Positions 27,564-62,821 of a stretch of 64,000 nucleotides of DNA are shown in pieces (position 1 is the first letter of the stretch; each line of letters starts with the position of its first letter). The notes beneath the pieces were generated by a model that had not been told where the DNA came from, searched no databases, and was given only the letters and a program-made list of their open reading frames with translations. The position numbers were made by a program, and so were the translations under genes. Source of the DNA: Cafeteria roenbergensis (lineage: Eukaryota; Sar; Bigyra; Bicosoecida; Cafeteriaceae); NCBI GenBank assembly GCA_008330645.1, contig VLTN01000065.1:124001-188000 (forward strand), written 5' to 3'.

Positions 27564-27892
27564 GGTCCTCAGAGGAGGCGCTGGCGAGAAGCCGCGCGCA
27601 GCAAGCACGGGAAGTCTTGCGCGAATTCGCTTGCACAGGAAAGCCACCCTTCTCTGGGCGAGGCTCGCGCCCGCGGACGCCGGCACGGCCGCCGGGGTGC
27701 GCTGCTCCGCCCCGCTGGCAGCGGCAAGCGGGTGCTCGCGCGAGCTGGCCGGCGCGGCGGCGAGCGAAGCTGGGAGCGCGCCGCAGCTCTGCCCGAGTTC
27801 TGCAACTCGCGACGCCAGCCTTGCGCGAGTTCCGCTGCGGGGCCACATCAGCCGGGGCCGGCAAGAAAGGGGCGCCGAGCGAGTCGGGGCGG

Positions 27893-28165
27893 ATGTCTCG
27901 TGCTGGGTCGCAGCGCCTCTCTGGGCTGCAGCGAGACGTGCTTGCGCTGTACAGGGAGTGCCTCCGAGCGGCCAGGGCCAAGCCCTCCGCTGACGCCCGC
28001 CAAGCGGGCCACGAGTACGTGCGCGCCAAGTTCCGGGAGCATGCTTCCATTCGCCGGGCGGACTTCATGCGAATCGAGTTCCTGATTCGCCAGGGGCGAA
28101 AGCAATTAGACATGTTCGGAAGGCCTGACGTTGACGGCTTCGCCGTGTCCACCGTCAGGAGGTGA
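27893..28165 (+). CDS. SDHAF1: succinate dehydrogenase assembly factor SDHAF1 (LYR protein)
   Basis: This is a 90-residue single-exon gene. [20 protein letters not shown] contains the LYR motif. [20 protein letters not shown] and [13 protein letters not shown] match human SDHAF1 ([33 protein letters not shown]) almost position by position. SDHAF1 is a mitochondrial matrix chaperone that recruits the Fe-S transfer machinery through its LYR motif to mature SDHB of complex II. The start follows from length and the N-terminus [14 protein letters not shown], like human MSRHSRLQR. It is divergent from DUS1, with 330 bp between start codons. Confidence 0.9.
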
Positions 28166-37049: not shown

Positions 37050-38027
37050 GGCAAGCCCAACTGGTGCTCACGCCGCGCACCTGGCTTGCGTGCAGCCTGC
37101 GGGGCACCGAGGGGGCAGAGATCAAGCGCGCGGCGCCGAGGCTGTTTGGGAGGGCGGGCTAGGGGCGAGCCGGGCGCGACGGGGCGGCCTTTGCGAGCGG
37201 GCCGGGAGGCTGGGAACGATCTGCCTGCAGGTTGCTGGGACGACTCCCCAGCACTCCAGGGGACAGGATTGCGCGCGCGGCGCCGTGGTGCTGTTGCTGC
37301 GTCGCCGCCCAACCCAGCGGCGCGTGCACTGCTCCAACGCGCGCGTGCAAGCAGCGCCCCGCGGGCTCGCTGTCGGCAACAACGCCCTGTGCAAGTTGAC
37401 CTCAGGCGACAAAACTCTCGCGGCCGCCGCCGCAAACGTCGGCCAGGACCCGCCACGGATGGACCCGCTGGGGCACGCGATCCGCGGACTGCACTCACCC
37501 CGCTTCGGCTGCCCACGCCACTTCGCGCGGATCTCTGTGGCCGAGCAGCGTGATTCGCGCATTCGCGGCGAACTCGTCGGGCCTTGCTGCGCCCCGGCAG
37601 AGCTCTTGACGTCCCGAGTCTCGCGATCAAGCCCAGCCCCCGACCGCCCCCCGCTGCGCCTCGCAACCTTGCCCCCGGCTTGCTGGCACGCCCGTAGGCG
37701 GCCACGCGAGGATGGGAGCACCCTGCGGTGCGTCGTCTTGCCCGGGTGCGAGTGCGTTCGTGTTGCTTGATGCATCAGCAGTAGCCCAAGGCTGGCGATT
37801 TCCAACTCGAGACACACGAATCTGACGCCGTCACCCGCGACAAGAAGCGCGGCTTCAGCTTGCCAATTGCCTACGCACGCACAACACCACACCAGTTGCA
37901 CAAAGAATTCGCTGGTCCTGAATCACAGGGCGCTCCAATCGCAGCACGCCTGCCAGCGAGCAGCTCCCGCCGGAGTGCGCCGCGCCGCCACGGCACACGA
38001 AACGCTGGGCCCGGCCAAGCTTGCGAT
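37050..38027. other. intergenic, no gene seen
   Basis: About 980 bp lie between the RME-8 start and the 3' end of VMA21, both on the minus strand. It presumably includes the RME-8 promoter. All open frames overlap one another and none resembles a known protein. GC falls somewhat near 37750-37950. Confidence 0.5.
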
Positions 38028-43603: not shown

Positions 43604-44050
43604 TCACGGTCGGTCCGGCGAGGCCATGGGGACAAGAGTGAAGTACTTGGGTCGCAGCTCGGGGGCGAGTCCGCCGCCTGCGGCCAGCATCTGGGAGATG
43701 AGCGGGGATACGTGCGCCATAGGGTCGTGTGCCATCGACCTGGGCATGTCAGCAAGCATGGCGTCGTCCGGGATGGCTGGTTCGTCGTGCAGGAACCGGC
43801 ATCTCGCGCCGTACTCGCAGCGACCTTCGACCCAGAAGCTCCGGCAGCGCTCCGTCTTGTGCTTGGGGTGGCGAGCCACAGGCCTGAGCTCCACTAGCCC
43901 GTGGGCAAACTGGCACTTCTCTCCGTACCTGCACGCCCCCGTCTGGGTGAATGTCCGGCACATTTCCGTCTTGAACAGCGCATGCTGGCCACCCCCCGAA
44001 CGGCCGGATCTTCCTGACCTGGCGCCCATGCGCCCTCCAGAAGCGGCCAT
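43604..44050 (-). CDS. tandem CCCH zinc-finger protein, TIS11/TTP type
   Basis: The product is 148 residues from the ATG at 44050; the frame is open further upstream (ATG at 44416), but that leader is not conserved-looking. Two fingers have the exact C-x8-C-x5-C-x3-H spacing: [20 protein letters not shown] and [20 protein letters not shown]. Each has the lead-in typical of the family (FKTEMC, HKTERC), with 18 residues between fingers (GLVELRP...HPKHK). TIS11-type proteins bind AU-rich elements in 3' UTRs and promote mRNA decay. The C-terminal 60 residues carry no known NOT1-binding motif that I can identify. Confidence 0.85.
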
Positions 44051-44645
44051 CAGTGTTTTGGCGAAGAGGGGCACTTCCTGGCCCCGGCGGAGCTTGGGGC
44101 CGCTCGGTGCGCCTTGATCTCGACAGCCGCCTTGAGCCGTGCAGGGTTTGCTGCTGGCGCTCTGCCCGCTCGCCGTCGACCGCCCCGCGCGCCCCCGGCC
44201 CACCGGCTGGGCGCAGGGCTGCCTTCTTTGAGGCGCAGTTCGCCCCCCAGCTCGAAGGCAGCGCGGCCCGAGAGTGAGGCGGCCTTCCCTGAGGCTGCAC
44301 ATGCGCCGCGGGCTTGGCCTGGCGTCGTTGGCTTTGCGTTCATGCCCCAGCGTCGTCGGCCGTGCGCCCAATCCAGGCCAGGCCTCTTGAATCCTCGCGA
44401 ACTTTTCGGTTACCATGCCTGGGGCGCTTGATTCGTCGCTTTCAGAGGTCGGGCCGTGGTGGGCTTGCGGATGCCTTGCGCTTGCTCGCGGGAGCCTGCG
44501 CATTTCTCGCTCCCCAGGCCCCATGCCTCGCCGTTCCCGGCTTCGACTTATTGCATGATGCGCGATTAGCTCGAACCTCTTGCTGGGATCGCATTTTGGG
44601 CCGCCCTGCCGCTGTTCGCAGGCCCTCGTTGCCGCTCGTGCCCGC
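44051..44645. promoter_or_regulatory. divergent intergenic region (CCCH gene / p400-like gene)
   Basis: About 600 bp lie between start codons at 44050 (-) and 44646 (+). It would contain 5' UTRs and both promoters. Part may be coding if the CCCH gene starts at 44416. No specific element was recognised. Confidence 0.35.
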
Positions 44646-46321
44646 ATGTCCGCCCTGGCTCCGCCCCCGGCAGCAATGTCAGGCAGCGGGGCCTCCCACG
44701 CAACGGGGCACGTTACCCCGATTGTGGCCGGCGACCCGGCCCGAGGCTACAGCGCGTCTAGCGCTGGTGGCACTCCACGGGCCGTGCAGACGCCGAGCGC
44801 TGCTGCTCTCGAGACGCTTCGCGGCTGCAGCGCCCTGGCCTCGCCCGCGGAGCGCGTGGAGGCAGTGTCTGGAGCCGTCTCTGTGCTCCTGCGCCGCCGT
44901 AAGGCCCTCGCTGACGCCCTGCGCGAGAAGCAGCGCGGGGCACCGGGCCGCCGCCTGTACGTCCGACTGCCGGAGCCACCCCGCCGCAAGACTCACTGGG
45001 ACTTTTTGTTGGAGGAGGCGCTCTGGGCTGCCACGGACTTTTCCTCCGAGCGCCGCTGGCGGGCGCACACGCTGAAAACTCTGGCAACGGCCGCTGCCGC
45101 TGCCGCCAGGCTTCGCTTGCGCCGGCGTGCCCTCGCCCGCCGCGCAGCTGCCGCCCGCACCGCGGCACCCAGCGCAGCCGCGCCGGAGTCCCTCTCTGCC
45201 TCCGACGAGGCCGCCCGCCGTCGTGTGGCGCGCGCGGCATCCGCCGCCGTGGCCGCGGCGTGGCGGGCAGCGTCGAGGCTTGCCCGCTCTGGCCACGCCG
45301 GGTCGGGTGCCGCCCTCCTGCGGGCGGGCGCGCTGGCCGAGGGCACGTGGTCGCTGCCCCGCGGCTGCAAGCCGCAGTCCACGCAGCCGGCGCCGGACGC
45401 CGCTCTGGCCGATTCCGGCGGCTCTGCAAGCATAGGCTCTGCAGGCATCGGCTCTGCAAGCAGCGGCTCTACCGAGGAAGACGACGCTCTTCGGTCGACG
45501 ATGGCGCTGCTGCTCGGCCGGCCGCCGGAGGGGCTGTCGGAGGCCCCTCCGCTGGCCGACGGCCAGGCGGCCTCGCACTCCTCCGTGTCAGCCGCTCTCT
45601 GCGACGCCAAGACGCGCGCTGCGCTGCGTCGCGCGGAGATGGTGGCGGACGCCGCGGTGTTCCGCGGACCAGCCTCCTCCTCCTCCTCCTCCTCCTCTGG
45701 CAAGGCCGTGTCCAACAGCGGCGGCAAGGTGAGGCCAGCCGACGCCGAGTCTGCCGAGGCACTGGCGCCCGGATCGGTTTCGACGGCGTCCTCCTCGGCG
45801 GCCGATGCCTCGTCCGGGGGCGCGGGTACCCCCGTCGCCGCCCCCGCTCCGCGCGAGGAGGCTCGTGTCGTGATCACTCGCTGCGTGGACCGCCTCCTCG
45901 GCCGGGCTGCGGCCGTGTCGGAGGCCGTGTTCGGGCCCAATCAGCACCCGCACCTGCCCCCATCGGCCTCCAGGATGACAGCTCCCCTCGACCCCCACCT
46001 CGGCCGCTCCCTTCGGCCGGGTGAGCGGTTTCGCACGGCGAGGGAGGCGTCCATCAGGCTGGGAGCCATCTTCGCGAGCGACGCCGCATCTCTCCCGGCG
46101 CCCATCCGACGGCGCGTAAGGCCGTACCAGCTGGCCGCGGCCCGCTGGCTGCACGGAATCGCGCTGTCGCGGACGGAGCACGGCCACGCTCCCGGCGCCA
46201 TCGTGGCCGACGACCGCGGCACTGGAAAGCGACTCACGGCCTTGGCCACGTGGGCCCTCGTTTCCGCTCGTGCGGCAGGGCTGGCCCAGCCTCCGCCCGC
46301 ACTCGCTCCAGACTCCTCGTC

Positions 46322-46357
<36 letters not shown>

Positions 46358-46977
46358 CGCCACCGTCGCAGCGACGCCGCCCGCCCAGCGTTGGTCTTCG
46401 GACCACACGGGGTCGCGCGTCCTCGCCCCGCCTCCACCGACGCCCTCCACCCCGGCAGAGCCAGCGGCAGCGGCGGACGGCATGGGGTGGCCCGGTCTCG
46501 GCGAGGGCCGCGGCATGCTGGTGGTGACCCCCCCCACGCTGGTGCACCGCTGGTCGGCCGAGGCCGCCCGCTGGTTCCCGTCGGCGCGCCTTCTCGTGCT
46601 TGGCGCGTCGGTGGTGCCCGCGCTCCTTCACACGGACATCGTCGTCGCCACGCCGTTCCAGCTGCGGCGCGCTGCCGTCGACCCGACCGCGCACCCGCTC
46701 CCTGACGGCTCGTCAATCGTCCACCACCTCTGGGCGATGGTGGTGGCCGACGTCACGCTGGGCGAGGTGCCCAGCCAGCCCGGCAGCCTCGGAGGAGCCA
46801 TGCCGGTGTCTCGACCCCCGGTGATGGCCGCGCTGGTGGACTTGCTGCCGGAGATGGAAGCCGCAGCCGAAGCCAGCAAGGCCGCCGCCATGATTGCGTC
46901 TGACGCGATCCTTGAAGGGGCGGCGGGCGGCGGAGCGCAGGCCGACGCGCCGGCGGCGGACACCACAGCAGCCACCA

Positions 46978-47039
<62 letters not shown>

Positions 47040-50000
47040 TCGGCCAACGGGGCGTTCGGCGCCGCGCGTTCCAGCCAGCCGCCCGCCCCCGCCGGCGCCG
47101 CCCCCGGCTGCAGTCTGCTGCCTTGGCCGGTGCTCACGCGGCTGCCCGCCGTTCGCCGCCTCGTCATCGCGAACCGCCTCCTACCGGTAGAGCCGCGGGC
47201 CGCCATGTCCCTGGCCCGGTTCGTCCTCGGGCAGGCGCTCCCCTCGCCCGCCGCCCTCCTCGTCTGGCTCGGTGCCGATGCTCGGCCGCGCAAGCTCTCC
47301 ACCGAGGCGGTCGCGCGCCTCTCAGCCGAGAACGGCGGGGCGCCAGTGGCAGAGCCGGCTGCCGCGGAGGAGGCCACCTCCTTCGTGCTGGACGCAGAGC
47401 TGGAGGACGCCGCCGCCGCAGGCCGGCTGAGCGACGAGGACGGGCCCGTGCTCCGCGACGCCATGCTGCCGCTCTGCATCCGCCGCCAGCTCCTGGACCC
47501 GGGGGTGGCCGCGCAGCTGCCCCCCGTCACGGTATCGGTCATCGGCTGCGAGCCCACGCGGCTGCAGCGGGCGGCGCGCGACGTGACGCTCGCGTCGGAC
47601 GCCACCACTGCGGCCGTGCTCTCCGCCGGCCCCATGGACGGCTCCCCCGCCGGCATCCTCGCCGTGCTCGCGCGGCTCCACGCTGCGGCCCAGCATGCCG
47701 CGGCGCGGCCGGGCTGCGCCGCGGCTGGCGCCGGCGGCCTCGCCCTCAACACGGCGCGGCTGGAGGACGGCGCCTCGTCCGGCCGCCCCTGGTGGCGCAG
47801 CGTGGTGTCGGAGGGCGGCATCGCCGCTGCAGTGGCCCTCACGGACCGCGGCGCCGTGGGAGCAACCCCGCTCGCCGGTGTGCTGGCCGGCGCGCCGTCG
47901 GCCAGCGCCACTGCTGCCTACGGCGGGGCGGCGGGCTGGGGCGTCGACGGCGCTGCATGCGGCCAGGCCTCCGCGCTCAGCCGTCGCGCCTTCGGGCCCT
48001 CCACCGCCCTCAGCCTCGACGCGGCGTCCGTCGCACCCGTGCGCGCCCTCGCTGCCGTGGCCTCGCTGCTGGCAGGCACGGACGCCGCCGTCGCCGCCCC
48101 GGGCACCGCCACCGGCGCGGGCGGCTGGGCCGGGGTCGCTCTGGCCGCCGCGGCCACCGTCGCATCGCTGCGCGGGCGGGCCGGCGGCTCTGCCGGGTGG
48201 TGCCCCGGCGCCGGAGCGGCCTTCTCGGCCCAGAGCACCGGCGCCGGCGCGTCCCACGCAGCGTCGCTGGCGCACGCCCTTGCGCCCCGGCAGCTCGGCG
48301 CGTCGCTCCTGCCCTCGCGCCACGCGACGGCGGTGGCGGCTGGCCGCCGGGGCGGCATAGCGGGCTTTGGCGACGGCTCGCGCCACCTGGTGCTGTCCGC
48401 CGCCGAGGGGCTCGCCGCCGGGTGGGCGCAGGGCTGCGGCTGGCCGGGCGCCGGCAGCGACGCCTGCCCCAGCGCGGGGGAGGCGCTCTGGGCGCTGTCG
48501 GACCCCGTCGCGGACCTCGTGGCGGCCCAGGACACTGGCTCTGCCGGCGTTGCGCTGGCAGCGGCGCGCGCGGGGCAGCCGCTGGCACGGGCGGCAGCGA
48601 CGGTGCGGGCGGCGCTCGCCATCGCAGCAGGCCCACCCCGCTCCGGCTGGATCTGGGAGCCCGCGCTGGTTCGGAGGCGGTGGGGGGCACCGGTGCACGC
48701 TGGCAGCGCCGCGCCCTCGCCCGTGCGGCGTCACGGCGGCCTCCTCCTCCGCTTGACGGCGGAGCGACGCGCGGCTGCTCCCGCCCCCACCCAGCGCCCG
48801 CCCGCCTCGGTCACCCGCCTCGGCTCCCTGGTGGGCGCCGTGCCGCTGGCGGCGTGGCCGAGCCTGGCCCTGGCCCGGGCCCTGGGCGAGGGCGTGCGCC
48901 CCTGGTGCGCCCCGCCGGACCCGCTCTCCGGCGGCGGCGCCCGCCCGGCGGCGCTCCTCCCCGCGGAGGCGGACCAGTGGGCGCGCGCGGCGGCGCCGCC
49001 GCAGCGGGTCGCAGGGGCGCTGGCCGGCCTGCGCGTCGCCCCGCCCGCCGCGCTGGTGGCCGCGCTGAGCGACGGCATGCCCGTCGACGCCTCGCCGTGG
49101 GGCCGCGACGACACGCCCTCCAGAGACCCCGACTGCCGGGCCGACGCTCTGGCCGCGGCCTCCTCCAAGCTGGCCACCCTGCGCCACCTTCTGGCGGAGG
49201 CGCACTCCCTCGGCCAGCGTGTCCTCGTCCTGGCCTCGGCGGAGCACGCCGCCGACGCCGCGCAGGCCATGTGCGCCGCCGCGGGTGAGCCCGCCCTCCG
49301 CCTCGACGGCAGGGCCGCGTGGGCGGCTTCCACCACCTCCGGCCCGCTCAGCGAGACGGCCGCCGTTCGGGCGGTGCGGGCCGCGGGCGCCGCGCCGGGG
49401 CTGCTGAACCCGGCGGCCGTTGCCCGGTTCAACGCAGACCCCGCCGTCCGCGTCGGCCTCGCCTGTGTGTCCGGGGTCCACGAGCGCGGTCCCCTCCCCG
49501 GGGAGGCCGCCACGGCGCCCGCGACGGCCGCGCCCTCTGTCCCTGGAATGGCCGCCGGCAGCCTCGCCGGGTCGCCGCTGCCCGGCGACGGCGTCAACTC
49601 GGGCCCCGTGCCCTTCGGCGCCGACGTCGTCGTGCTGTTCGACGTCTGCGTTGACCCGCGCGCCGCCGCCAGCCTGCGCGAGCTCCTCGCCCGGCTGGCT
49701 GTGTCCGCGGGCGGCGGGGCTGGCATGCGCGTGGTCCAGCTCGCCACCCGCGCCACGATCGAAGAAGGCTTGCTGCGAGCCGCTGCGCGAGCCGTCCGCG
49801 CGTCGGCAGGCGCGGCAGCGCAGTCGGGCCAGGCTGTCACCAGCGGCGGCGCGGACGCCCCTCCGATGCACGCCGGCGACGAGCCCGTGTCCGCGCTCAC
49901 AAGGGGGCTGGGCCTGTCGCTGGTGGGGCTCTCTGCAGCCCTGCTGCGCACCGTCGATTTCCGCGCCCTGGCCATGGGCGAGCTCAGGGCCCCCTCCGCG

Positions 50001-53000
50001 GGCCCCACCGCCGCCGGGGCCCTCGTGGCGGCATCGATGGGCTCCTCCGCCGCGAGCGCCGCGGCGGCCGGCCGCGAACTCTCCTCCCTCAACCGCATCG
50101 CCGCCGCTGACTACCACGCCACGCTGGCAGCGGCCATGTCCGGGGGCGCCCCGTCGCTGCCCCTGTCGGTGGCGCGCCTCCTCGCCGAGCTGGTCGACGT
50201 CCCCGCCGCAGCAGCAGGCCCGGCCTCCTGGCTGGCCTCCGCGCTCGGCGCAAAGGCCACCGCTGCGCTCGAGTCCGCGCCCCTCACAGCGCCCTTCTCC
50301 GCGGCAGCAGCAGCCACCGCCGCTCTCGCAGCAGCCGAGTCGACGCCCCGAGCGGGCGCCAAGCGGGCCGGTCGGCGCGCCTCGGCCGGCAGCAAGCAGA
50401 AGCCAGCAGCAGCAGCGGCTGCGGCGGCAGCGGCGGCGGCGGCGGCAGCAGCAGCAGCGGCAGCAGCAGCCGCGGCGGCAGCGTCATCAGCCGGGGGTGC
50501 AGCGTCCGGAAGGGCGGCCGCGCTCTCGGAGCTGTCGCAGCTGGCGCAGGGCGGTGCGGGCCCTGCCGTGGCGGCCATGGCCCGCTTCGCCCGGGCGCTC
50601 GCCGCCGCGCCGCTCCTCGCAGCCATGTGCCGCAGGGCGCGGTTTCGCCGAGGCGCGGAGGCGGCCGGCCTGCCTCTCGGCGCCGCCACCAGCCTCTTCC
50701 CCGAGACGGGCGCCTCCATCCCGTGCCGCGTGCGGCCGGCTCTGCTGGACCTCCGCCGCTCTGCCCTGGCCTCAGCCCCGCGGGCGTGCTGTGACTCGCC
50801 GGGGGTGGGGCCGGGCGCCGCGTCGGCCAACCTCTCGCTCACATACCCGCGTCACGCCGCAGCCATCGGCTCGTCGCGCGCAGTGGCCGCCTCTGCCGTG
50901 GAGGCGCTCGCCTGGGAGCAGAGCTGGGCCGGGGCGCTCCACTTCTCCATGGCGGCCGCTCCGCCCGACCCCGCCCACGGCACCCTGCACTGCGCACCGG
51001 CGGCCATGGACGACCCGTCCTCGGCGGGCGCGCTGCGCCAGCTGCTGGCCCACCAGGAGCACCAGGCGCTCGACCGCCAGTCCAAGTCGGTCGGCTCCAG
51101 CTCCGCCGGCGCGCTGTCCGTCACTGACGCCGCCAGGCGCGCCGCCGTGGCGCGGCTCTTCGCCAAGCGGGCCCGCACGGGGGACGCGCTGCGCCGGCCC
51201 GACGGCCTGGACCGGGCGTTTGCCGGGTCCGGCGCCTGGGCGGACGAGCGATGCATCGGCCACATCGTGCCCGACGCCACCGCTGTCAAGTGCACGGCCG
51301 ACCTGGCGGCCGCAAACGCGCAGAGCGGATCCGTGATCAACATTCCGGCCGCGCAGCTGGCGGTGGACGAGGCGCGCGCCCTCGCGATGGACGCGGCCGG
51401 CTCCCGTGCCCTGGCCGCCTCCGGCTCCGCCGACGCCGTGAACGTGGCCCGCGCCATGGCGCGAAACGCCCAGCTGGCCATGACCACGCGCGAGGCGGCA
51501 GTGCGGGCGGCCCGCCTGGCGGTCGAGGCCCGCGGCGCCGACAGCGCCGCCACTCTGATGCTCGCCATGGAGGCGGCGGGCGGCCGCCGCGGGGGCCGCA
51601 CCGCCGCCCCGCAGGCGAGCTCTGCCGGCGTGGGCGGCACGCTGATGCTCTGCCAGGGCCTGGACTGGTCGGGCGCCACGAACACAAAGAGCGCCGTGGC
51701 GGCAGAGCTGAGCGTGGCGGCAGCGGCGGAGGACCCGGGATGGACGGAGCCCGAGGGGCTGGCGGCGCAGGGGGCGTCTCGCTCCCGCGGCGCGGTGGGC
51801 AGTGCGCTTGGCCGCGGCTCTGCCGGCGCGGCAGCGTTCCTGCGAGCGCGTCTGCGGCGCCGGGCGCGGGCCGGTCGCGACAGCGTCACCGACCCGCACG
51901 CCCCCCTCGTGATCGCGCCGCCGCCGTCGCATTCGTCCCAGAGCCGCCTCGACTCGCCGTGGCAGCCGTGGGAGGACGTGCTTCTGGAGCGCCTGGTGCA
52001 CGAGCTGGGCGCGCACTGGGACCTGATCCGGGATGTCCTGGCCGGGCACCCGGAGGCAAAGTCCCAGACCATCGTGCGAAGCAACCGCCAGTGCTACGAC
52101 CGCCACAGGCGCACTCTCGCCGCGGCGTCCGACCGGTACGACGCCGCGCTGCTCAGCCGATGGGCGCAGCAGAGCGTGCCGCTGACAGGCGCAGCGGGCC
52201 GCATGGGCGGCTCGGCGGGCCACGGCATCGCCGCCGCGGGCGGCTGGCACGCCTTCCGAGGCGGCGCGGACTGGCGCGCTGCCGCCGCCACCAGCGCCGA
52301 CGGCCTGCCCGGCAGAGCTCGCGGCGACGTCCTTTCGGCAGGGGCGCCGCCCGGGCCCGCCGCGGCGTCGGCTGCGTCCAACGCCGCCTCTTCCACCGCC
52401 GCCGCCGACGCCGCCGCCGCAGCCGCCGCGCTCTCGGCCATGTCTGCGCTGCCAGTGGTCGCGGCAGACGTGGACGACGCCCGCGCGGCGGGAACCGGGC
52501 CCCGGTGGCAGAGCGCCGCTTCCATCTGGGACACGGCTCGGGCGGCGGCCGGAGAGGCGGCAGGCGGTGCGCGTCGCGCCGCGGTCGAGGGCTGGAGGGG
52601 CCCCGGCGCCATGCCGTCGTCGCTGCCAACGCAGTGGTCGCGCCTCTTCACCAGCCTGCGGCTCATTCTGCGCTCGCAAGCCGCCAACGCCGAGGCGGAG
52701 GCGGAGGCGACGCTTCGCCCCGCGCGGCCCTGGCCCCCCAGCGAGGAGTACTTTGGCCGCCTCAAGACCCCCGCCGACTCGCTCCTGCGCCGCGCCCGCA
52801 AGGCGCTGGCCGACCGCCCTATGCCCAAGCTCGCAATCTTCCACGCCGCGCCCTCGGCCCCGCGCCCGCCCCCCCACGACAGCCAGAGGCGCCTCGTGCC
52901 GGAGGCCTTCCGCGCCGCGTCGCTGGCGGGCGGCCCGGCCCCCAAGCCGGCCGTGCCCATGTCGCAGCCCATGGCCCCCGACGCCGCGCTGCGGGAGGCC

Positions 53001-53741
53001 GGCATCGAGCCGGGCCCCAAGCACTCCCGGCGCTCGGTCAAGTACTACCGCACGACTGCGCCGTACCTGCTCCGCGTCGAGAGCGAGCGGGCCAGGCAGC
53101 GCCTCGAGGCGCCCGGCGCGGGCAGGCACGCCGCGGGGGCGGCCATGGGCATGCCGCACCCTGGCATGCCGGCGCAGGGCCGCCACGCGTCGCAGGCCGC
53201 GTCGCGCATGGCCACGCCGCACGGCGGCGCCGCCACGCCTGGGCTCCCCTCCCTCTCAACCCCCGTGGCGCTGGCCCGCGGCTCCAGCTCCGGGTCCGTC
53301 GCCTCGTCCAGGAAGCGCCAGTCCTCGCGATCCGGCTCTGCCGGCAGGAGCGCCGGCCCCTCCGCCAAGCGCCGCGCTGCGGGCGATGTGTCTGCGACCA
53401 CCCCGCTCCCGCCCCAGGCCGGCACGCCTGTGGAGACCCCGGCGGCGGCGGGGCCCTCGCTGGACCCCGCGGCGTCTGCGGACGGCTCGCTGCCCGGCGG
53501 CTCCCCAGACGACATGGCGGCCGCAGTGGCGCAGTACGAGACGCAGCCCGAGCACGTGCGGCGGCAGATCGACCTCATCATGGACGATGCGTCGCTCACG
53601 GACGAGGAGAAGGTGGCCCGGATCCAGCCCTTCTTCTCGGCCGAGGAAACCACGGTGGCCACGCCCGTGCCGGACAGCGCGGGCGGCAGCCGCAAGGGGC
53701 GCGCCAAGGGCAAGGCCAAGGGCAAGGGTGGCCGCAAGTGA
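44646..53741 (+). CDS. p400/Domino/Eaf1-like scaffold: HSA, eroded SNF2 domain, SANT
   Basis: The product is a single-exon protein of 3031 residues. The HSA domain starts near residue 115 ([18 protein letters not shown]), as in p400, SRCAP and Eaf1; HSA binds actin and Arp4. A SNF2-like region follows. [18 protein letters not shown] and [20 protein letters not shown] (about 515-535) align with RPYQ..G..WL and [26 protein letters not shown], then [15 protein letters not shown] and [17 protein letters not shown] ... RLDGRA ... RFNADP align with later SNF2 parts. GKT is GKR, the DEAH box reads DVTL and the helicase-C QxxxRxxR is missing. A SANT/Myb domain near 2440 ([20 protein letters not shown]) completes the p400/Eaf1 order. 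The tail is basic. Likely role: scaffold of a NuA4/TIP60-type acetyltransferase complex with little or no ATPase activity. Confidence 0.8.
46315..46365 (+). repeat. coding Ser-codon microsatellite (TCC/TCG)n
   Basis: A run of TCC/TCG codons encodes a polyserine stretch inside the SNF2-like region of the p400-like protein, between the P-loop and the PPTLVHRW segment. Confidence 0.85.
46980..47040 (+). repeat. coding (TCG)n microsatellite, about 20 units
   Basis: An almost pure TCG run encodes polyserine in the p400-like protein. One strand also reads as Arg or Val/Asp repeats, which explains Asp- and Arg-rich phantom frames here. The length is likely to vary between individuals. Confidence 0.95.
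50402..50490 (+). repeat. coding polyalanine repeat (GCA/GCG/GCC)n
   Basis: About 28 consecutive alanine codons, mixed GCA, GCG, GCC and GCT, lie in the p400-like protein after the helicase-C-like region. Codon mixing suggests an older and more stable repeat than the pure TCG run. Confidence 0.9.
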
Positions 53742-54232: not shown

Positions 54233-55537
54233 TCACTTGCGCACAGCCATGAGGTTCCACACGCGGGACTTGTCGGCTCCCTTGATCTTGTGGGCGGGGG
54301 CGAACACCGGCTTGAGGCCGTGCTTCTTGAGGATGGCCACGGCGGTGTCGCGGTGCTTCTCGCTCTCCACCTCCATGGCCACCTGGTCCACGCGCTTCCA
54401 GTCCGCGTCGCTCAGGCCAGCCAGCACCTGCAGCTCCGCGCCCTCGACGTCCACCTTGAGGAGGCCGATGCGGCCGCCGGAGGAGGCGCCGACGCCGGCG
54501 GCCTCGAGCTCGTCCGAGAGCCGGGCAGTGGGGGCGGTCACGGTCTGGGTGCGCTGCATGCCATGCAGCCACTGGCGGCCCAGGAAGAGCGCCAGCGGGC
54601 GGAGCACGGCCAGCCACCCCGGCGCGATCTGGGGGCCCAGCAGCGCCAGCTCCTTCTCCATCTTCTCGTGGCGGTCGGCGTCGAAGTCGGCATCGAGCGT
54701 GGACCACAGGCTCATGTAGGGGTGGAACTGGAACTCGATGGAGCCCTTCTCCGTGCTGCAGGCCACGCGGTGGGCCACGAGCTCGGACACGCCGGCCTCC
54801 ACGCCCGCGGCGATGGAGCCCTCGTTCACGCGCTTGCAGTTCTCGCTGAGCACGTCGAAGATGGCAGGCATCGGCTCGAAGCTGTGGACGCGAGCGTTGC
54901 GGCCGCAGCGGTCCCATGCGTACAGAGCGAACATGCCGATGTTGCCTCCCACGTCCACCACGGTCATGCCGGGCTTGAACTCGAGCTCAATCTTCTCGCC
55001 GTCCTCCGACTCGATCGAGCCGTAGGTGTGGTCCTCGAAAATCTCCTTCACCAGCCAGTCGGTCTCCATCTTGTGGTAGCTGCGCACCTTGAGGCCGTTC
55101 TTGAGCAGCATGTCTGCGAGGAAGGGGCGCGCAAGGGCGATGGAGCCGGGCGGAAAGGGCCTTGGCCAGCAGCGGCGAGGCGCGACAACAAAAAGCACTC
55201 TGCAGAGCATGTGCGGACCGCAACGAGCCCCGTCTCAGCGCCGTTTGCGGCCCGACCGGGGCCCGGCCCAGGGCGGGCTGAGCGCGCGCAGCGTGGCAGG
55301 GCGCACGGAGCACCCCGCGGCAGTGGGTGCCGCGGGTGCCAGCACGTTGGCGGCCCTGGGGGGGCGGCCGCGCGCGCGACGAGAGCGCAACTTCAACGTG
55401 ATGGCGCTGGTCGCACCTTCTGCCGAGGGAGGCGGACTGAAGTACAGGAAGTACACGACAACCGCGGCCATCCCGCCAAGCACAACCGCCACCGCAGCTC
55501 CTGCCAGCAGCAGGGGGCTCTCCATCAGCTGCTCCAT
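54233..55537 (-). CDS. FkbM-family methyltransferase with N-terminal membrane anchor
   Basis: Exon 1 (55537-55417) encodes MEQLMESPLLLAGAAVAVVL and the rest of a single membrane segment, then PPPSAE, ending GAAG|GTGCGA in phase 1. Exon 2 (55113-54233) follows a good acceptor (CCCCTTCCTCGCAG) and completes GAC-ATG. The product is about 333 residues. The SAM-binding motif reads VVDVGGNIGMFALYAW. HSFEPMPAIFDVL and IGLLKVDVEGAELQVLAG are typical of FkbM (Methyltransf_21). The family O-methylates sugars, lipids or small molecules. The N-terminal anchor predicts a type II or ER/Golgi membrane protein facing the lumen, so a glycan or lipid substrate is a reasonable inference. The alternative, one exon starting at 55210, lacks the anchor and reads through the acceptor. 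Confidence 0.8.
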
Positions 55538-55892
55538 GGCTGGGCTCCAACTGTGCGAGATCGCCAACAAGCCCCCAACTCTCGACCAGCAGGCAGAGCA
55601 AGTCGTGCTCGAATCCAGCCCAGAGTTCGCTCGCGCCTCCAGTTCGCAGTTGCCGACCCGCACTGAGCGGCCGACTCGGTGGCCAGCTGCGCACACCGCG
55701 GCAGTGGCCGACCCCCGGGGGAGGAAATTGCCCCCACGGAGGCGCAGCTGTCCTAGGGGCATTGCGTGTGGCGCTCGTCGCCTGCCCCGCCGCCGAGTAG
55801 TTTCTCCGGGCCAGTTCCGCGCGGCACACCCGCGAGCGCGCGGCCGGGCCTCGGGTGCGGGCGCCGGAAGCCCGCCGCACAGGTGACCCGCG
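55538..55892. promoter_or_regulatory. putative shared promoter, FkbM and WDR44-like genes
   Basis: About 355 bp separate the start codons at 55537 (-) and 55893 (+). No core promoter motif was recognised; the assignment rests on the divergent layout. Confidence 0.3.
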
Positions 55893-57464
55893 ATGTCGGG
55901 CGCGTTTCTGCAGGACCCGAGCGGGGCGCTTCCGTTCGTGGCCCAGCGGCTGATCCTGGAGCACGACGGCGAGCGCATTCCGAGCTCGGCGGCCACTTGG
56001 AGCCACGACGGCGTGCTGCTTGCGGTCGGGGGTGGAAACGGCGCCCTGGGCTGCGTCTCGGTGTGGCGGCGGCGCGCCGGGGGCTGCGCCGGGAGCGCCA
56101 TGGTGCCGGCGCCAGTGCTGCACTTGGGCGGCTTCTGCGGCAGCGTGACCTGCGTTGCGTGGATCGGCCACCGGTGGCTCGCGGCTGGCGCGACGGACGG
56201 CCAGGTGCGTGTGTGGGCGCTCGACGAGGGCTCCTCGGCCGAGCCTGCCCGGGCCCGGACGCTCGCCAGCGTGAGTCACCCTGACGCCGTGACTGCCGTT
56301 TGCTCCGCCGGCCGCGGGTCAGTCGAGGCCAAGCTCGCCCCAGCGGGCGCCGCCGCCGGCGTTGCCGGCCGCCAGTCGCGCATGTCCGCCCCGCTGCCGC
56401 CGCGCCGGGTCTCGGGGTCGCCAGCCTCGCATCGCACGGGCGGCGCTGCGTCTGTCGACGGGTCCGCTCGCGCCGACACCCCAGCGTCCGTGACGGCGCC
56501 CCCGCCGCCCCGATCCCGCGCGTCGGAGCCCACCGCCCTCGAGGACGCCGCCCCCAGCGCTGGCGGCGTCGGCGGCTCGTCCGCCGCCCAGCTGGGCCCC
56601 GCCAGCGAGACTGCGAGTGCCGCCGGGCTGGGGTCGCCACCGCTGCTCTCAGCGGCGCCGCCGTCGAGGATGCCCTCCCCCGTGGTGGGCGACCCGGGCA
56701 CGTGGTCGCTGCCCCGCACCATGGTCACGGCCTGCTGCGACGGCCGCGTGCGCTCCTGGGGCGGGCCCTGCCGCCTCGACTCGGTGGCCCGCCTCCGCGC
56801 CACGCCGCTCAGCCTCGCCTGGTCTCGCCGGAACGACGCTCTGTGCGTCGGCGAGCCGGCCGGCGAGGTCCAGATGCTGCAGCTCGAGGCGGGCGGCGGG
56901 GGGCTCTCCTTCGTCACCAGGGCCGAGTGCCGAAACCGCAGGGGGCCCTTCCGCCTCGGGGCCCCCGTCGTCGGGGCCCACTTCCACCCCCGCGGCAGAG
57001 CCATCCTGGTGACGACGCTCGACGGCCGGAGCCGCGTGCTGGTGACGGAGGACGCCACGGCGCTCAGGCCGGTGCTGAAGCTGCGAGGGGGCGGCGGCAC
57101 CACACTGCGGTGCGCGGCGCAGTTCAGCCCCGCGGGGGGGCTGGTCGCCGGCGGGACGGAGGCGGGTGCGCTGGTGCTGTGGCGCGCTGCCCCGGAAGGG
57201 TGCGACCCGGCGCTGGTGGAGGCGCTGGTGCCCCGGTCTGCGCGCTCGCCGGCTGTGACGCCCGTCGCGCCGCCGCCCTCCCGCAGCCCCGCCCGCGCCG
57301 TCGTGAAGGCGGACCCCTTCGGCAGGCTGTCGCTGGGGAGCGCCTCCATCGCCGCGGTGGCCTGGTGCCCGGGGGCGGGCCGGCAGCTGGAGGACGGCTC
57401 CCACCTGCTGGCGGCCTCCGACGTGCGCGGCGTGGTCTTCGTCGTGGGGCTGCCCGCCGCGTAG
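55893..57464 (+). CDS. WD40-repeat protein, WDR44-like
   Basis: The product is 523 residues in one exon, starting MSGAFLQDPSGALPF at the ATG after a short leader. WD-type blades: SHDGVLLAVGGGNGALGCVS, VTCVAWIGHRWLAAGATDGQ followed by VRVWAL, SHPDAVTAVC, and later FSPAGGLVAGGTEAGALVLW. The segment LSFVTRAECRNRRGPFRLG ... GRAILVTTLDGRSRVL ... LRPVLKLRG matches the WDR44 / yeast Dgr2 region LKFTTQIDVRNSRG...KILVTSNDSRIRLYDL. In animals WDR44 binds Rab11 and acts in recycling and ciliary membrane traffic. A long Ala/Ser/Pro-rich loop (about residues 140-270) interrupts the propeller. The N-terminal Rab-binding part of WDR44 is absent, so the cargo role is not shown. Confidence 0.75.
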   Translation: MSGAFLQDPSGALPFVAQRLILEHDGERIPSSAATWSHDGVLLAVGGGNGALGCVSVWRRRAGGCAGSAMVPAPVLHLGGFCGSVTCVAWIGHRWLAAGATDGQVRVWALDEGSSAEPARARTLASVSHPDAVTAVCSAGRGSVEAKLAPAGAAAGVAGRQSRMSAPLPPRRVSGSPASHRTGGAASVDGSARADTPASVTAPPPPRSRASEPTALEDAAPSAGGVGGSSAAQLGPASETASAAGLGSPPLLSAAPPSRMPSPVVGDPGTWSLPRTMVTACCDGRVRSWGGPCRLDSVARLRATPLSLAWSRRNDALCVGEPAGEVQMLQLEAGGGGLSFVTRAECRNRRGPFRLGAPVVGAHFHPRGRAILVTTLDGRSRVLVTEDATALRPVLKLRGGGGTTLRCAAQFSPAGGLVAGGTEAGALVLWRAAPEGCDPALVEALVPRSARSPAVTPVAPPPSRSPARAVVKADPFGRLSLGSASIAAVAWCPGAGRQLEDGSHLLAASDVRGVVFVVGLPAA

Positions 57465-58949: not shown

Positions 58950-60800
58950 TCAGCCGCGCTTGGCAGCGCCCGGGACGAAGGAGGGGATCCCGGTGATGGC
59001 GCGGCCCAAGATGAGCGCGTGGATGTCGTGGGTTCCCTCGTAGGTGTTCACGGCCTCGAGGTTCATGGAGTGGCGGATGACGTGGTACTCGTCGGAGATG
59101 CCGTTGCCGCCCATCATGTCGCGGGCCTCGCGCGCGATGGCGAGGGCCTTGCCGCAGTTGTTGCGCTTCACCAGGGAGATCATGTCGGCGGGGTCGCACG
59201 TGGGGTCAGACTCCTTGATGCGGGCGACCTGGAGGGCCCCGAGGAGGCCCAGGGAGGTCTCCGTCGCCATGTCCGCGAGCTTCTTCTGGATGAGCTGGTT
59301 GGCGGCCAAGGGCGCGCCGAACTGCTGGCGCTCCATGGTGTACTCGCGAGCCGCGTGGAAGCAGAACTCGGCGGCGCCCATGGCGCCGAAGGCGATGCCG
59401 AGGCGGGCGCTGTTGAGGCAGGCGAAGGGGCCCTTGAGGCCCTTGACGCCGGGAAGAACGGCGTCGGCCGGGAGGACGACGTCCTCGAGGAAGATCATGC
59501 CGGTGGGGGAGGAGCGGAGGGAGAACTTGCCCTCGATGCGGGGCGTGCTGAAGCCCTCGGCGCCCTTGGCGCCGCGCTCCACGAGGAAGCCGCGAACGTC
59601 GCCCTCCTCGTCGCGGGCCCACACGATGGCGACGTCCGCAACGGGGCTGTTGGTGATCCAGTTCTTGGAGCCGTTGAGCACCCAGGAGCCGTCGGCGAGC
59701 TTGCGCGCGCGGGTGGCCATGCCAGCGGGGTCGGACCCGTGGTCGGGCTCGGTCAGCCCGAAGCAGCCGATGGTCTTTCCGGAGGCCAGGCGCGGCAGCC
59801 ACTTGGCCTTCTGCTCCTCCGACCCGAACTTATAGATGGGCAGCATCACGAGCGACGACTGCACGCTCATGGCGCTGCGGTAGCTCGAGTCCACGCGCTC
59901 CACCTCGCGAGCGATGAGGCCGTACGTGGTGATGGACGCCCCGGCGCAATCGTAGCCCTGGATGAAGGGGCCAAGGAAGCCCATGCTCCCGAAGCCCTCC
60001 ATGATGGACCGCTCGAACGTCTCGTGGCGGTTCGCCTCGATGATGCCGGGCATGAGCTCCTCCTGGCAAAAGCTGCGGGCTTGCTCCTGCGACAGCGCAT
60101 AGGGCGAGGAGGCCAAGGCGCAAAAGAGGGTCACAACTCGGAGAACAAACGCACAGGCCAGGCCACGCACGCCCGCCGGCGTCGCAAACGCTGGCGCCGC
60201 GATGGGGGGCGGGGCGCTCGGCTCTGGGCCAGCTCGCGCAGCCGCAGCGCCAGCAGCAGAAGAGCAGCGGGCGCGCACGAGGCCGATCGCCCGCCTCAGC
60301 GCCGGCCTTGCCGCGCAGCGGCACACACGGGACGCGGGCCTGCCTTGGGAACAGACTGGGCGCGTGCGCGCCAGCCCGCGGGGCGGGATGCTGCCGCGGG
60401 CGGCTCGTGCGCACGCTGACGCAAGCGCTGGGCACAGCTGCGCAGGCAGCGCCTCTGCTCAGGCGCCGGCCCGCCAGCGGCAAGCCGGCGCAATGCGGTG
60501 CCAGCCGCCCGCCCGCACCGCGTGGGCGCACTGGGGGCCACGCCCGGAGGCGCTGGGCGGGGAGGAACGGCGCGCGCCGCGGCGCGCGCGCCGGGTCGCG
60601 GCGCCGGGCGCAGTGTTCGGGCATGCGCGACCGCCAGCCGGCCTCACCATGACCATGGTCTCCTCCTCAGTCAGCGACTTGAGCGCGAGGAGCGGGTCCT
60701 CGAACTTCATGGCGAGGGTGGCCATGCTGCGGCCCGCGGGGACGGCCGTTGCGGCGGCGGGCCTTGCGGCCGCGGCGGCGCGGGCGGCGCGGGCGAGCAT
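58950..60800 (-). CDS. GCDH: glutaryl-CoA dehydrogenase, mitochondrial
   Basis: Exon 1 (60800-60648) encodes [20 protein letters not shown], a good mitochondrial targeting peptide, then [19 protein letters not shown], and ends at GTGAGG in phase 0. Exon 2 (60086-58950) starts after GCTGTCGCAG. The product is about 429 residues (human 438). Identity to human GCDH is striking: [86 protein letters not shown], and [20 protein letters not shown], which contains the catalytic Glu. The flavoprotein converts glutaryl-CoA to crotonyl-CoA in lysine, hydroxylysine and tryptophan breakdown and passes electrons to ETF. The intron is 561 bp, the longest well-supported one here. Confidence 0.95.
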
Positions 60801-60952
60801 TGTTGCTGTGCCTCCGAGGGGCGCCGGAAGCAGCAGAGTCGGCCCCGCTGCTTTGCTGGGCAGAGCCCGCCGATTGGAAGAAAAGTCAGCGGCGCGCCCG
60901 CCGGTGCGCGCGCGCCACGGGCCTGCACTTCACGACCTGGACCGAGGGCGCG
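60801..60952. promoter_or_regulatory. putative bidirectional promoter, GCDH and ZPR1
   Basis: Only 152 bp separate the GCDH start codon (60800, -) from the ZPR1 start codon (60953, +). No TATA box was seen. Confidence 0.35.
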
Positions 60953-62821
60953 ATGGCAACCGGGGAAGATGACATGTACAAGGACATCGGGGAGCAGGCC
61001 GAGGCGGTCGCCGTGTCTGGCGCCCCCGAGCACGAGGAGGGCGCTGCCGCGTCCGCCGCCGCCGCGGCCGCGGCTGGCGGCGCGGACAGCGACAGCGACG
61101 ACGAGGAGGAGCGGTCCGCCAAGGCTGCTGCGGCGGGCGTGCACGTTGTCGAGGGGTCGCTCTGCATGAGCTGCGGGGAGACTGGCACCACTCGGTTGAT
61201 GCCTACGCGCATCCCGTTCTTCCGCGAGATCATCATCTGCGCCTTTTCGTGCCCGGAGTGCGGCTTCCGCTCCTCCGAGGTGATGACGTCCCAGACGCAG
61301 GAGCGGGGCTGCATCTTCTCGCTCAAGGTCAGCAGCGAGGCCGAGCTGCAGCGGCAGCTCCTCAAGAGCGACAAGGCCACCGTGCGGGTGCCGTCGCTCG
61401 ACCTCGAGATCCCGTCCACCACCATGAGCGGCATCTTCACCACGGTGGAGGGCGTGCTCACCAACGTGGCCGACGACCTCGCCAAGGACCAGGTGGTGCG
61501 CCGCGCGATGGACCCGGAGAGCGCCGGCCGCATCGACGCCTTCATCGCCCGGGTGCGCCAGTGCCTCGACGCGGACCCCGCCGTGCTGCCCTTCGTGCTG
61601 GAGCTGGACGACCCGTCGGGCAACTCCTTCCTGGAGAACCCGCTGGCGCCCGCCCGCGACCCCGCCCTGTCCGCCCGCTTCTACCGCCGCACCAGGGAGC
61701 AGAACGAGTTCTGCGGCCTCAACCCCGACGCGGGGGTCACCGTCGACGACGACGCGTCGGCGGAGGGCGCCGGCAGCAGCGGCGGCGCCGACACGTCGAC
61801 CCTGGTCGGGTCGTCGGCCGTGACCTCCTCGACTCGCGACGCGGCGCCGGGCAAGGCGGGCGCCACCATCGCGTCCAACGCCACGGACCGGGCCCGCGCC
61901 ACGCCTTTGGACGTGACGCTGGCGTCGCAGGTGGAGTCCGACGTGCACAAGTTCAACACCCCGTGCAGCAACTGCGGCGGCGAGGCGCAGACGCGCATGT
62001 GCCTCACCAACATCCCGCACTTCAAGGAGGTCATCCTCATGGCCCTCGTGTGCCCCCACTGCGGCTTCAAGGACGTCGAGATCAAGGGCGGAGGCGCGGT
62101 GCCCGAGAGGGGCACATTCCACACGCTGCGCGTGACGCCGGAGACCGCGGCCGAGGACATGCGGCGCGACGTCCTCAAGAGCGACACGGCGGGCGTCAGC
62201 ATCGCCGAGCTGGACCTGGAGATGGAGCCCGGCTCCCTGGGCGGCATGTACACCACCGTGGAGGGGCTGCTGGACACGATGAGGGAGCGCATCGTGGCGG
62301 CCAACCCCATGGCGCACGCGGTCGGCGACTCCGCCGCCGACGCTGCCGCAACGCCGGCCCGCTTCCGCGCCTTCCTGGCCGCGTTTGAGAGCGTGTGCAA
62401 GGGCGAGATCGCCTTTACCCTGGTGATGAAGGACCCCATGGCGAACTCCTGGGTGTACTCTCCCTGGGACGACGAGGACGCCGACAAGGCCGCCTCCCTC
62501 GCTGCGACCGCCGGCTTCCGGGGCGCCCACCTCGGCTCTGCGCTGGACACGCACGCCGCTGCGGCTGCGGAGACGGCGGACAAGCCAGACGCCGCCGCTG
62601 CGGCAGCTGGCGGCGACGCGAAGCCGACGGGCGTGGAGGCGAGCGCCGCAGCCACTGGCCGCGACCCGCGCCTCACCTTGGAGTGGTACACTCGCAGCAA
62701 GGAGGAGGACGGCGAGCTCGGCATCGCCGACATGGATGTGGCCAGCTTCCCCTCCGGCGGCCCGGACGGCCAGCACGGCAAGTCGCGCGACGATGGCGAC
62801 TCACCCGCCGCTGCCGAGTGA
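60953..62821 (+). CDS. ZPR1: ZPR1 zinc-finger protein
   Basis: The product is 622 residues in one exon, starting MATGEDDMYKDIGEQAEAVA after a G-rich leader. It has the duplicated ZPR1 layout. Module 1 has CMSC then 29 residues to CPEC, with TRLMPTRIPFFREIIICAF, LKSDKATVRVPSLDLEIP and GIFTTVEGVL. Module 2 has CSNC ... CPHCGFKDVEIK, LKSDTAGVSIAELDLEME and GMYTTVEGLLDTMRE. ZPR1 is a conserved chaperone that helps fold translation factor eEF1A and moves to the nucleus in dividing cells. An Ala/Ser/Thr-rich linker of about 75 residues separates the modules, and a low-complexity insert with an acidic tail closes the protein; it is longer than human ZPR1 (459). Confidence 0.95.
   Translation: MATGEDDMYKDIGEQAEAVAVSGAPEHEEGAAASAAAAAAAGGADSDSDDEEERSAKAAAAGVHVVEGSLCMSCGETGTTRLMPTRIPFFREIIICAFSCPECGFRSSEVMTSQTQERGCIFSLKVSSEAELQRQLLKSDKATVRVPSLDLEIPSTTMSGIFTTVEGVLTNVADDLAKDQVVRRAMDPESAGRIDAFIARVRQCLDADPAVLPFVLELDDPSGNSFLENPLAPARDPALSARFYRRTREQNEFCGLNPDAGVTVDDDASAEGAGSSGGADTSTLVGSSAVTSSTRDAAPGKAGATIASNATDRARATPLDVTLASQVESDVHKFNTPCSNCGGEAQTRMCLTNIPHFKEVILMALVCPHCGFKDVEIKGGGAVPERGTFHTLRVTPETAAEDMRRDVLKSDTAGVSIAELDLEMEPGSLGGMYTTVEGLLDTMRERIVAANPMAHAVGDSAADAAATPARFRAFLAAFESVCKGEIAFTLVMKDPMANSWVYSPWDDEDADKAASLAATAGFRGAHLGSALDTHAAAAAETADKPDAAAAAAGGDAKPTGVEASAAATGRDPRLTLEWYTRSKEEDGELGIADMDVASFPSGGPDGQHGKSRDDGDSPAAAE

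What the first reader, a model, noticed from the sequence alone, without database searches (positions are those of the whole stretch)
44646..53741. p400/Eaf1-type protein with a SNF2 motor that has lost its catalytic residues
The order HSA, SNF2-like, SANT is that of p400/Domino. The SNF2 region can still be followed (RPYQ, Walker-A-like [13 protein letters not shown], helicase-C-like RLDGRA...RFNADP), yet GKT is GKR, the DEAH position reads DVTL, the TGTPLQN motif is unreadable and the helicase-C arginines are missing. Fungal Eaf1 has HSA and SANT with no ATPase; animal p400 has an active one. This protein looks like the step between: a pseudo-ATPase kept as a fold. It could mean that NuA4-type scaffolds lost remodelling activity more than once.
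Basis: partly seen in the sequence, partly recalled or inferred. Interest (0 to 1): 0.8.

Follow-up and report, generated by a model that had tools for sequence, protein, structure and literature searches.

The report
p400-like chromatin scaffold with decayed motor
A eukaryote, probably a single-celled one, carries a large chromatin-complex scaffold protein that keeps the shape of an ATP-driven motor between its two docking domains but seems to have lost the residues that burn ATP, which may show how such scaffolds turn from machines into pure platforms.

Summary
The finding holds. ORF 44580-53741 (+; first ATG 44646, 3031 aa) has no stop where 28-32 are expected. It encodes HSA (Pfam E 2.9e-10), the start of an SNF2 domain (4.6e-6) and a weak SANT/Myb domain (5e-4) in p400/Domino/PIE1 order. 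In the PDB the HSA part matches human p400, the SANT part fungal EAF1 weakly (E 0.0067). Profile comparison finds both motor lobes (96% and 94%; 0 of 60 shuffles as good), though with only four eukaryotic references lobe 1 drops to 7%. AlphaFold models, built on SNF2-rich alignments, match SNF2 structures.

The catalytic motifs are decayed: GKT is GKR, DEAH is DVTL, TGTPLQN is ANRLLPV, motif V is split, DRCHRIGQ is ELLARLAVS. No other frame holds intact motifs, and none of 2507 single in-frame GT-AG splices creates one. Human p400 also has altered motifs, so decay is a matter of degree.

Best reading: an intact NuA4-type platform with a pseudo-ATPase. Inactivity, species, relatives and any 'step towards Eaf1' are untested.

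The parts
44646..53741 (+). whole protein, 3031 aa from the first ATG (ORF opens at 44580)
   Evidence: single ORF without stops, 28-32 expected by composition; third-position GC 0.88
44970..45101 (+). HSA domain
   Evidence: Pfam HSA E 2.9e-10, 3.5e-11 as a piece; human p400 E 7.2e-7
46116..46244 (+). SNF2 lobe 1, Q motif and Walker A (GTGKR at 46218-46232: Lys kept, Thr replaced by Arg)
   Evidence: Pfam SNF2 E 4.6e-6; block test 5 of 500 shuffles; alignment
46515..46601 (+). SNF2 motif Ia, well kept
   Evidence: block test, 0 of 500 shuffles reach it
46635..46769 (+). SNF2 motifs Ib and II; D at 46749 kept, followed by VTL instead of EAH
   Evidence: alignment and codons; no hit in the block test; no GT-AG splice makes DE there, one GC-AG case does but removes conserved core
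47151..47231 (+). SNF2 motif III region; TGTPLQN position reads ANRLLPV (LLLTGTPLQN against 47160-47189)
   Evidence: alignment to SRCAP, SWR1, p400 and L001; placed elsewhere in some larger alignments
47451..47582 (+). end of lobe 1 (IRR...QLPP...LQR, matching LRR...KQMP...RQR)
   Evidence: alignment; weak alone: hhalign 1.6% to 9.5% for residues 850-1012
47712..49139 (+). long insertion between the lobes; limits set by eye
   Evidence: about 500 aa separate the aligned lobes, against about 540 in p400, 1150 in SRCAP and 270 in SWR1; no Pfam match in 47649-49049
49158..49322 (+). SNF2 lobe 2, motif IV to RLDG
   Evidence: 0 of 500 shuffles; lobe 2 as a whole: hhalign 63% with 4 eukaryotic sequences, 94% with 40
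49413..49499 (+). lobe 2, RFNADP and first half of a disrupted motif V
   Evidence: alignment; block G weak, 42 of 500 shuffles reach it
49617..49793 (+). lobe 2, GADVVV to IEEGLL including decayed motif VI (ELLARLAVS)
   Evidence: 0 of 500 shuffles; alignment
51957..52103 (+). SANT/Myb domain
   Evidence: Pfam Myb 5e-4 whole, 1.1e-5 as a piece; fungal EAF1 E 0.0067

Best explanation
This is an apparently intact p400/Domino/PIE1-type platform subunit whose SNF2 motor has become a pseudo-ATPase. Inferred working: the HSA helix binds the actin/Arp4/SWC4 module, the SANT domain binds TRRAP/Tra1, and the two RecA-like lobes with their long insertion stay as a structural scaffold, perhaps binding RuvBL proteins, DNA or nucleosomes, without the ATP cycle that drives H2A.Z exchange. 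Shown: the domains, their order, both lobes, and the altered catalytic residues. Inferred: partners, complex and inactivity.
For: Domains and order. Best PDB sequence match for HSA is p400 and for SANT is EAF1. Both lobes are found specifically: lobe 1 96%, E 2.1e-9; lobe 2 94%, E 1.6e-7; four other segments of the protein and the wrong-lobe pairs give 0.45% or less, and 0 of 60 shuffles reach the score. AlphaFold cores reach pLDDT of about 85-95 (pTM 0.62 and 0.69), and Foldseek hits are entries of SNF2 proteins, with the human P400 subcomplex first for lobe 2. Catalytic residues are changed at five motifs in one continuous frame. No stops where 28-32 are expected, so this is not an old pseudogene. 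[quoted passage not shown]
Against: Conserved columns are not lost preferentially in the catalytic motifs: 20 of 46 invariant motif columns are kept against 64 of 197 elsewhere (Fisher p 0.17). The whole motor has diverged, and that count credits split motifs. Human p400 has altered motifs III, V and VI yet is credited in print with H2A.Z exchange, so motif reading alone cannot prove inactivity. The Walker A Lys, the Asp of motif II and one Arg may remain. Motifs Ib-II and III are not found by the block test. With four eukaryotic references only, lobe 1 gives 7% and lobe 2 63%. The SANT match is weak. The structure models and the larger profiles used sequences chosen to keep eight anchors aligned, so they are not fully independent.
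Confidence: 0.7

Rival explanations
1. A divergent but still active p400-type ATPase: like human p400, it tolerates altered motifs, with Lys of Walker A and Asp of motif II doing the essential work.
For: Human p400 reads IDSPLHN, STHSRTTG and WCDRIGR, and papers credit p400/TIP60 with H2A.Z exchange (passages). Walker A Lys, motif II Asp and one motif VI Arg position are kept here.
Against: Human p400 keeps GKT and DE; this protein also loses the Walker A Thr (to Arg) and the motif II Glu, and motif V is split by about 40 residues.
Confidence: 0.15
2. A decaying gene: the motor (or the whole gene) is under relaxed constraint on the way to loss.
For: Long poly-Ser and poly-Ala tracts; conserved columns are kept at similar, low rates in and out of motifs.
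Against: 3053 codons without a stop against 28-32 expected, third-position GC above second in 37 of 41 blocks of 75 codons, and HSA and both lobes remain detectable.
Confidence: 0.08
3. Artefact of reading: unspliced introns or sequence errors hide intact motifs.
For: Motif II and motif V lie next to long inserts, no transcript is available, and I recognised no split gene in the ORFs scanned from which to learn an intron rule.
Against: None of 2507 single in-frame GT-AG deletions (20-1500 bases) in 46100-50000 creates one of the patterns tested within 8 residues of its junction, and an open check for DE at motif II gave only one GC-AG case that removes conserved core. Motifs I, III and VI sit in unbroken homologous sequence. 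No intact motif in six frames.
Confidence: 0.05
4. A decayed remodeller of another HSA group (SWR1, INO80 or SWI/SNF) and not p400/PIE1. This concerns the group only and is compatible with a dead motor.
For: Lobe 2 matches SRCAP and INO80 structures almost as well as p400; the SANT match is weak.
Against: The HSA part matched only p400 at E<=1 among PDB chains; a SANT after the motor fits p400/PIE1/Eaf1.
Confidence: 0.1

Closest known systems
Human p400 (EP400) / Drosophila Domino A
   Same: HSA, SNF2 with long insertion, SANT in this order; best PDB match for HSA, and the human P400 subcomplex is the top fold match for lobe 2; human p400 also has altered motifs III, V and VI
   Different: human p400 keeps GKT and DE; here GKR and DV, with motif III replaced and motif V split
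Plant PIE1
   Same: HSA-ATPase-SANT architecture outside animals (passages of PMC4358907)
   Different: not compared by sequence here; PIE1 is described there as necessary for H2A.Z incorporation
Fungal Eaf1 and plant AtEAF1
   Same: HSA and SANT without a working motor; SANT here matches EAF1 best, weakly
   Different: Eaf1 is described as lacking the ATPase domain; this protein still has both lobes
SRCAP / SWR1
   Same: SNF2 motor with long insertion between the lobes; both lobes align
   Different: their catalytic motifs are canonical (SRCAP reads DEAQ)

Membership tests
p400/Domino/PIE1 platform | HSA before the motor | tested here: met
p400/Domino/PIE1 platform | two-lobed SNF2 domain | tested here: met
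   Pfam finds only the start of lobe 1
p400/Domino/PIE1 platform | long insertion between the lobes as in the INO80 group | tested here: inconclusive
   about 500 aa between the aligned lobes, in the range of p400, SWR1 and SRCAP; length only, and the protein has other low-complexity inserts
p400/Domino/PIE1 platform | SANT after the motor | tested here: met
   weak: Myb piece 1.1e-5, 25.9 bits against a cut-off of 24.4; EAF1 0.0067
p400/Domino/PIE1 platform | phylogenetic placement with p400/PIE1 | not testable with these tools
   no collection of eukaryotic genomes; scans of viral and prokaryote contigs gave only SWR1-type HSA loci
active SNF2 ATPase | Walker A GKT/S | tested here: not met
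   GKR
active SNF2 ATPase | DExx box | tested here: not met
   DVTL; MAFFT can align an EA 40 residues after the D across a gap
active SNF2 ATPase | motif VI arginines (DRxHRxGQ) | tested here: not met
   ELLARLAVS, at most one Arg in register
active SNF2 ATPase | ATP hydrolysis | not testable with these tools
   needs protein
Eaf1 (NuA4 platform) | HSA and SANT with no SNF2 domain | tested here: not met
   both lobes present

The most novel reading that the evidence does not exclude
This protein is a living intermediate that shows Eaf1-type platforms can arise by decay of the motor in an HSA-SNF2-SANT ancestor, and the human p400 motor is part-way along the same path; the usual story, in which p400 arose by putting a SWR1 motor into an Eaf1-like protein, would then be reversed.
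Probability: 0.3. Interest if true: 0.8.

Novelty: new variant of a known kind. Interest (0 to 1): 0.6.

Why it matters
The origin of the two NuA4 platform types is usually told as a fusion (Eaf1 plus Swr1 gives p400; passages). A protein with a fold-preserving but catalytically broken motor between HSA and SANT makes the opposite direction, loss of the motor, directly testable by trees and biochemistry. It also draws attention to the altered motifs of human p400 itself.

Tried and rejected
A search for relatives of the protein in viral contigs found none (2 stretches matched a pattern, none confirmed). The HSA profile found one locus in viral contigs (1 of 34 pattern matches; L107, same contig as L001) and one in prokaryote genome contigs (1 of 5; L108, a 36% GC contig filed under a bacterial MAG); both look to me like SWR1-type eukaryotic genes, not p400. 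A dynein search to find related contigs gave nothing. Rfam and tRNA scans were empty. Lobe HMMs run on the whole protein gave only weak scores (-4.3 to 11.3 bits); the first version of that script failed in part because of a wrong option. Larger MAFFT alignments moved motif III (with 23 sequences, with 8 and 20) and, for lobe 2, the RLDG box. I then kept only sequences that preserved eight anchor pairs (for lobe 1 the start had 5 of 8 anchors right and 25 of 45 offered were kept; for lobe 2 the start had 8 of 8 and 37 of 45 were kept), so the structure inputs lean towards my alignment.

Taxon: a GC of about 70% and intron-poor genes would fit the bicosoecid Cafeteria (GC ~70%, 1.67-1.89 introns per gene; passages of PMC6972860), but nothing here tests this and I do not claim it. 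Ten paper searches (one search was about the taxon, one search returned nothing) listed no title or abstract start on a motor-dead p400 homologue. The library is open-access only. I opened six papers: passages of PMC11995519, PMC6972860, PMC9236257, PMC7239659 and PMC7047200, and passages plus one section of PMC4358907; none of what I saw describes such a protein.

Full report
Observation. The ORF at 44580-53741 (+) is open for 3053 codons; the first ATG is at 44646. From its composition 28 to 32 stops would be expected. Third-position GC is 0.88 overall and above the second position in 37 of 41 blocks of 75 codons. Pfam finds HSA at residues 131-174 (E 2.9e-10), SNF2 at 516-674 (E 4.6e-6, first 84 of 290 profile positions) and Myb/SANT at 2460-2508 (E 5e-4, below cut-off); pieces score 3.5e-11, 1.6e-6 and 1.1e-5. 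Pfam does not find the helicase C lobe, and pieces holding motif III to the end of lobe 1, or lobe 2, gave no SNF2 or helicase family.

Is the motor real? phmmer against the PDB with the region between HSA and SANT gave six hits at E<=10, three of them SNF2-type proteins, none significant alone (E 0.21 to 1.1), but each with collinear pieces at the Q motif/Walker A, motif Ia and motif IV. A block test with four eukaryotic sequences gave low scores (-4 to 6 bits) and these counts of 500 shuffles reaching the real one: Ia, IV and VI none; Q-I 5; V 42; LRR 2, but its best hit is in the wrong place; III 46, best hit elsewhere; Ib-II no hit at all. Profile-profile comparison with alignments that do not contain this protein (28 and 40 sequences) gave 96% (E 2.1e-9) for lobe 1 and 94% (E 1.6e-7) for lobe 2. 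With four eukaryotic sequences alone it gave 7% (E 0.005) and 63% (E 7e-5). Most of the lobe 1 signal lies in its first part (residues 503-680, 96%); the second part (676-1012) gave 7% (E 0.005). Insert, post-motor, C-terminal and N-terminal segments and wrong-lobe pairs stayed at 0.45% or less. 0 of 60 shuffles reached the score for lobe 1, its second part, and lobe 2; 1 of 60 did for the segment 850-1012. The profile sequences were those kept plus SRCAP, SWR1 and p400.

Fold. AlphaFold on lobe 1 (26 sequences) gave mean pLDDT 66, pTM 0.62; on lobe 2 (38 sequences) 74 and 0.69. The cores are high, the motif III stretch intermediate (about 69-84) and the poly-Ser and other inserts low. Foldseek against the PDB: for lobe 1, 22 matches at E<=0.001, all entries that by title hold SNF2 proteins (CSB, Mot1, ALC1, SRCAP, ISWI, BRM, TIP60/p400, Rad54). 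For lobe 2, 59 such matches, of which the 50 best rows were seen; the first is a chain of the human P400 subcomplex (E 3.4e-6), then SRCAP and INO80. TM-scores by query length are modest (0.20-0.36 and 0.37-0.50 in the rows seen), as I would expect with long disordered inserts. The input alignments were rich in SNF2 proteins and picked to keep my anchors, so this supports but does not independently prove the fold.

What is lost. In the alignment with SRCAP, SWR1, L001 and human p400: Walker A ADEMGLGKT is ADDRGTGKR; the D of DEAH is kept and followed by VTL (an EA 40 residues further on is aligned by MAFFT across a gap; codons); LLLTGTPLQN is [16 protein letters not shown] is broken and about 40 residues are inserted around GDGVN before GAD; QDRCHRIGQ is [10 protein letters not shown]. 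Of 46 motif columns invariant in SRCAP, SWR1 and L001, 20 are kept; of 197 other invariant columns, 64 (Fisher p 0.17). Human p400 keeps 28 of 46 and 127 of 197. So the motifs, which should be the best conserved part, are not conserved detectably better than the rest. Hydrophobic positions outside the motifs are kept above composition (40 of 59 and 20 of 34, Ala not counted, against about 25%), though alignment optimises this.

Hidden motifs? The patterns GxGKT, DEAH/DEGH, TGTP, SGTP, LTAT, HRxGQ and RxxRxGQ occur in none of six frames over 45.8-49.9 kb. None of 2507 single in-frame GT-AG deletions gives GxGKT/S, DExH-like, TGTP/SGTP or HRxGQ-like patterns within 8 residues of its junction. 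An open check for DE at motif II gave one GC-AG case that deletes conserved core. Two-intron combinations, and GC-AG or other non-canonical sites away from motif II, were not tested.

What it is. The HSA piece matches only human p400 at E<=1 among PDB chains (the chain was a shorter chimera, and full-length p400 entries were not listed, which I cannot explain). The SANT piece matches fungal EAF1 at E 0.0067. HSA-SNF2-SANT is the architecture of p400, Domino A and PIE1 (passages of PMC11995519, PMC7239659 and PMC4358907). In the human complex HSA carries the ARP module, the motor and insertion sit with the hexameric AAA-ATPase, and SANT binds TRRAP (passages); in yeast Eaf1 binds Tra1 through SANT (passage of PMC7047200).

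How it most likely works. As a NuA4-type platform in which the motor fold is structural. Support from outside: Domino A's ATPase activity is dispensable for H4K12 acetylation, and inserting the Domino ATPase between HSA and SANT of yeast Eaf1 is reported not to affect its function (passages of PMC7239659). Against: p400 with altered motifs still counts as active in print, so residue loss alone is not proof.

Limits. No whole genome is held, no p400-type relative was found, and the taxon is unknown. The evolutionary reading is therefore a hypothesis.

Noticed in passing
window 43607-44647 (-): A CCCH zinc-finger protein ORF (Pfam zf-CCCH E 2.8e-16) starts head to head with the p400-like gene; the two first ATGs overlap by two bases, so at least one gene probably starts further in.
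   Followed up: partly
window 8526-22397 (+): A 4623-codon single-ORF dynein heavy chain with Pfam matches from DHC_N1 to Dynein_C, including an axonemal DYH2-5-8 coiled-coil, which suggests a flagellated, intron-poor eukaryote.
   Followed up: partly
window 28602-37067 (-), 25092-28064 (-), 2440-6366 (+), 54233-55234 (-), 55887-57464 (+), 58950-60458 (-), 60683-62821 (+): Neighbour genes, each recognised within one ORF (completeness not tested): RME-8/DNAJC13, Dus, protein kinase, FkbM methyltransferase, WD40 protein, acyl-CoA dehydrogenase, ZPR1.
   Followed up: partly
human p400 (not in the window): Human p400 has diverged motifs III (IDSPLHN), V (STHSRTTG) and VI (WCDRIGR), which I did not find discussed in the passages read.
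   Followed up: partly
L001/L027/L107 (IMG/VR, one contig) and L108 (bacterial MAG record): SWR1-type genes that look eukaryotic, filed as a viral contig and as a Rhodobiaceae MAG contig, probably contamination.
   Followed up: no
window 46314-46358 and 46980-47042: Poly-serine tracts from TCC/TCG repeats inside the motor region, in stretches of low model confidence between motifs.
   Followed up: no
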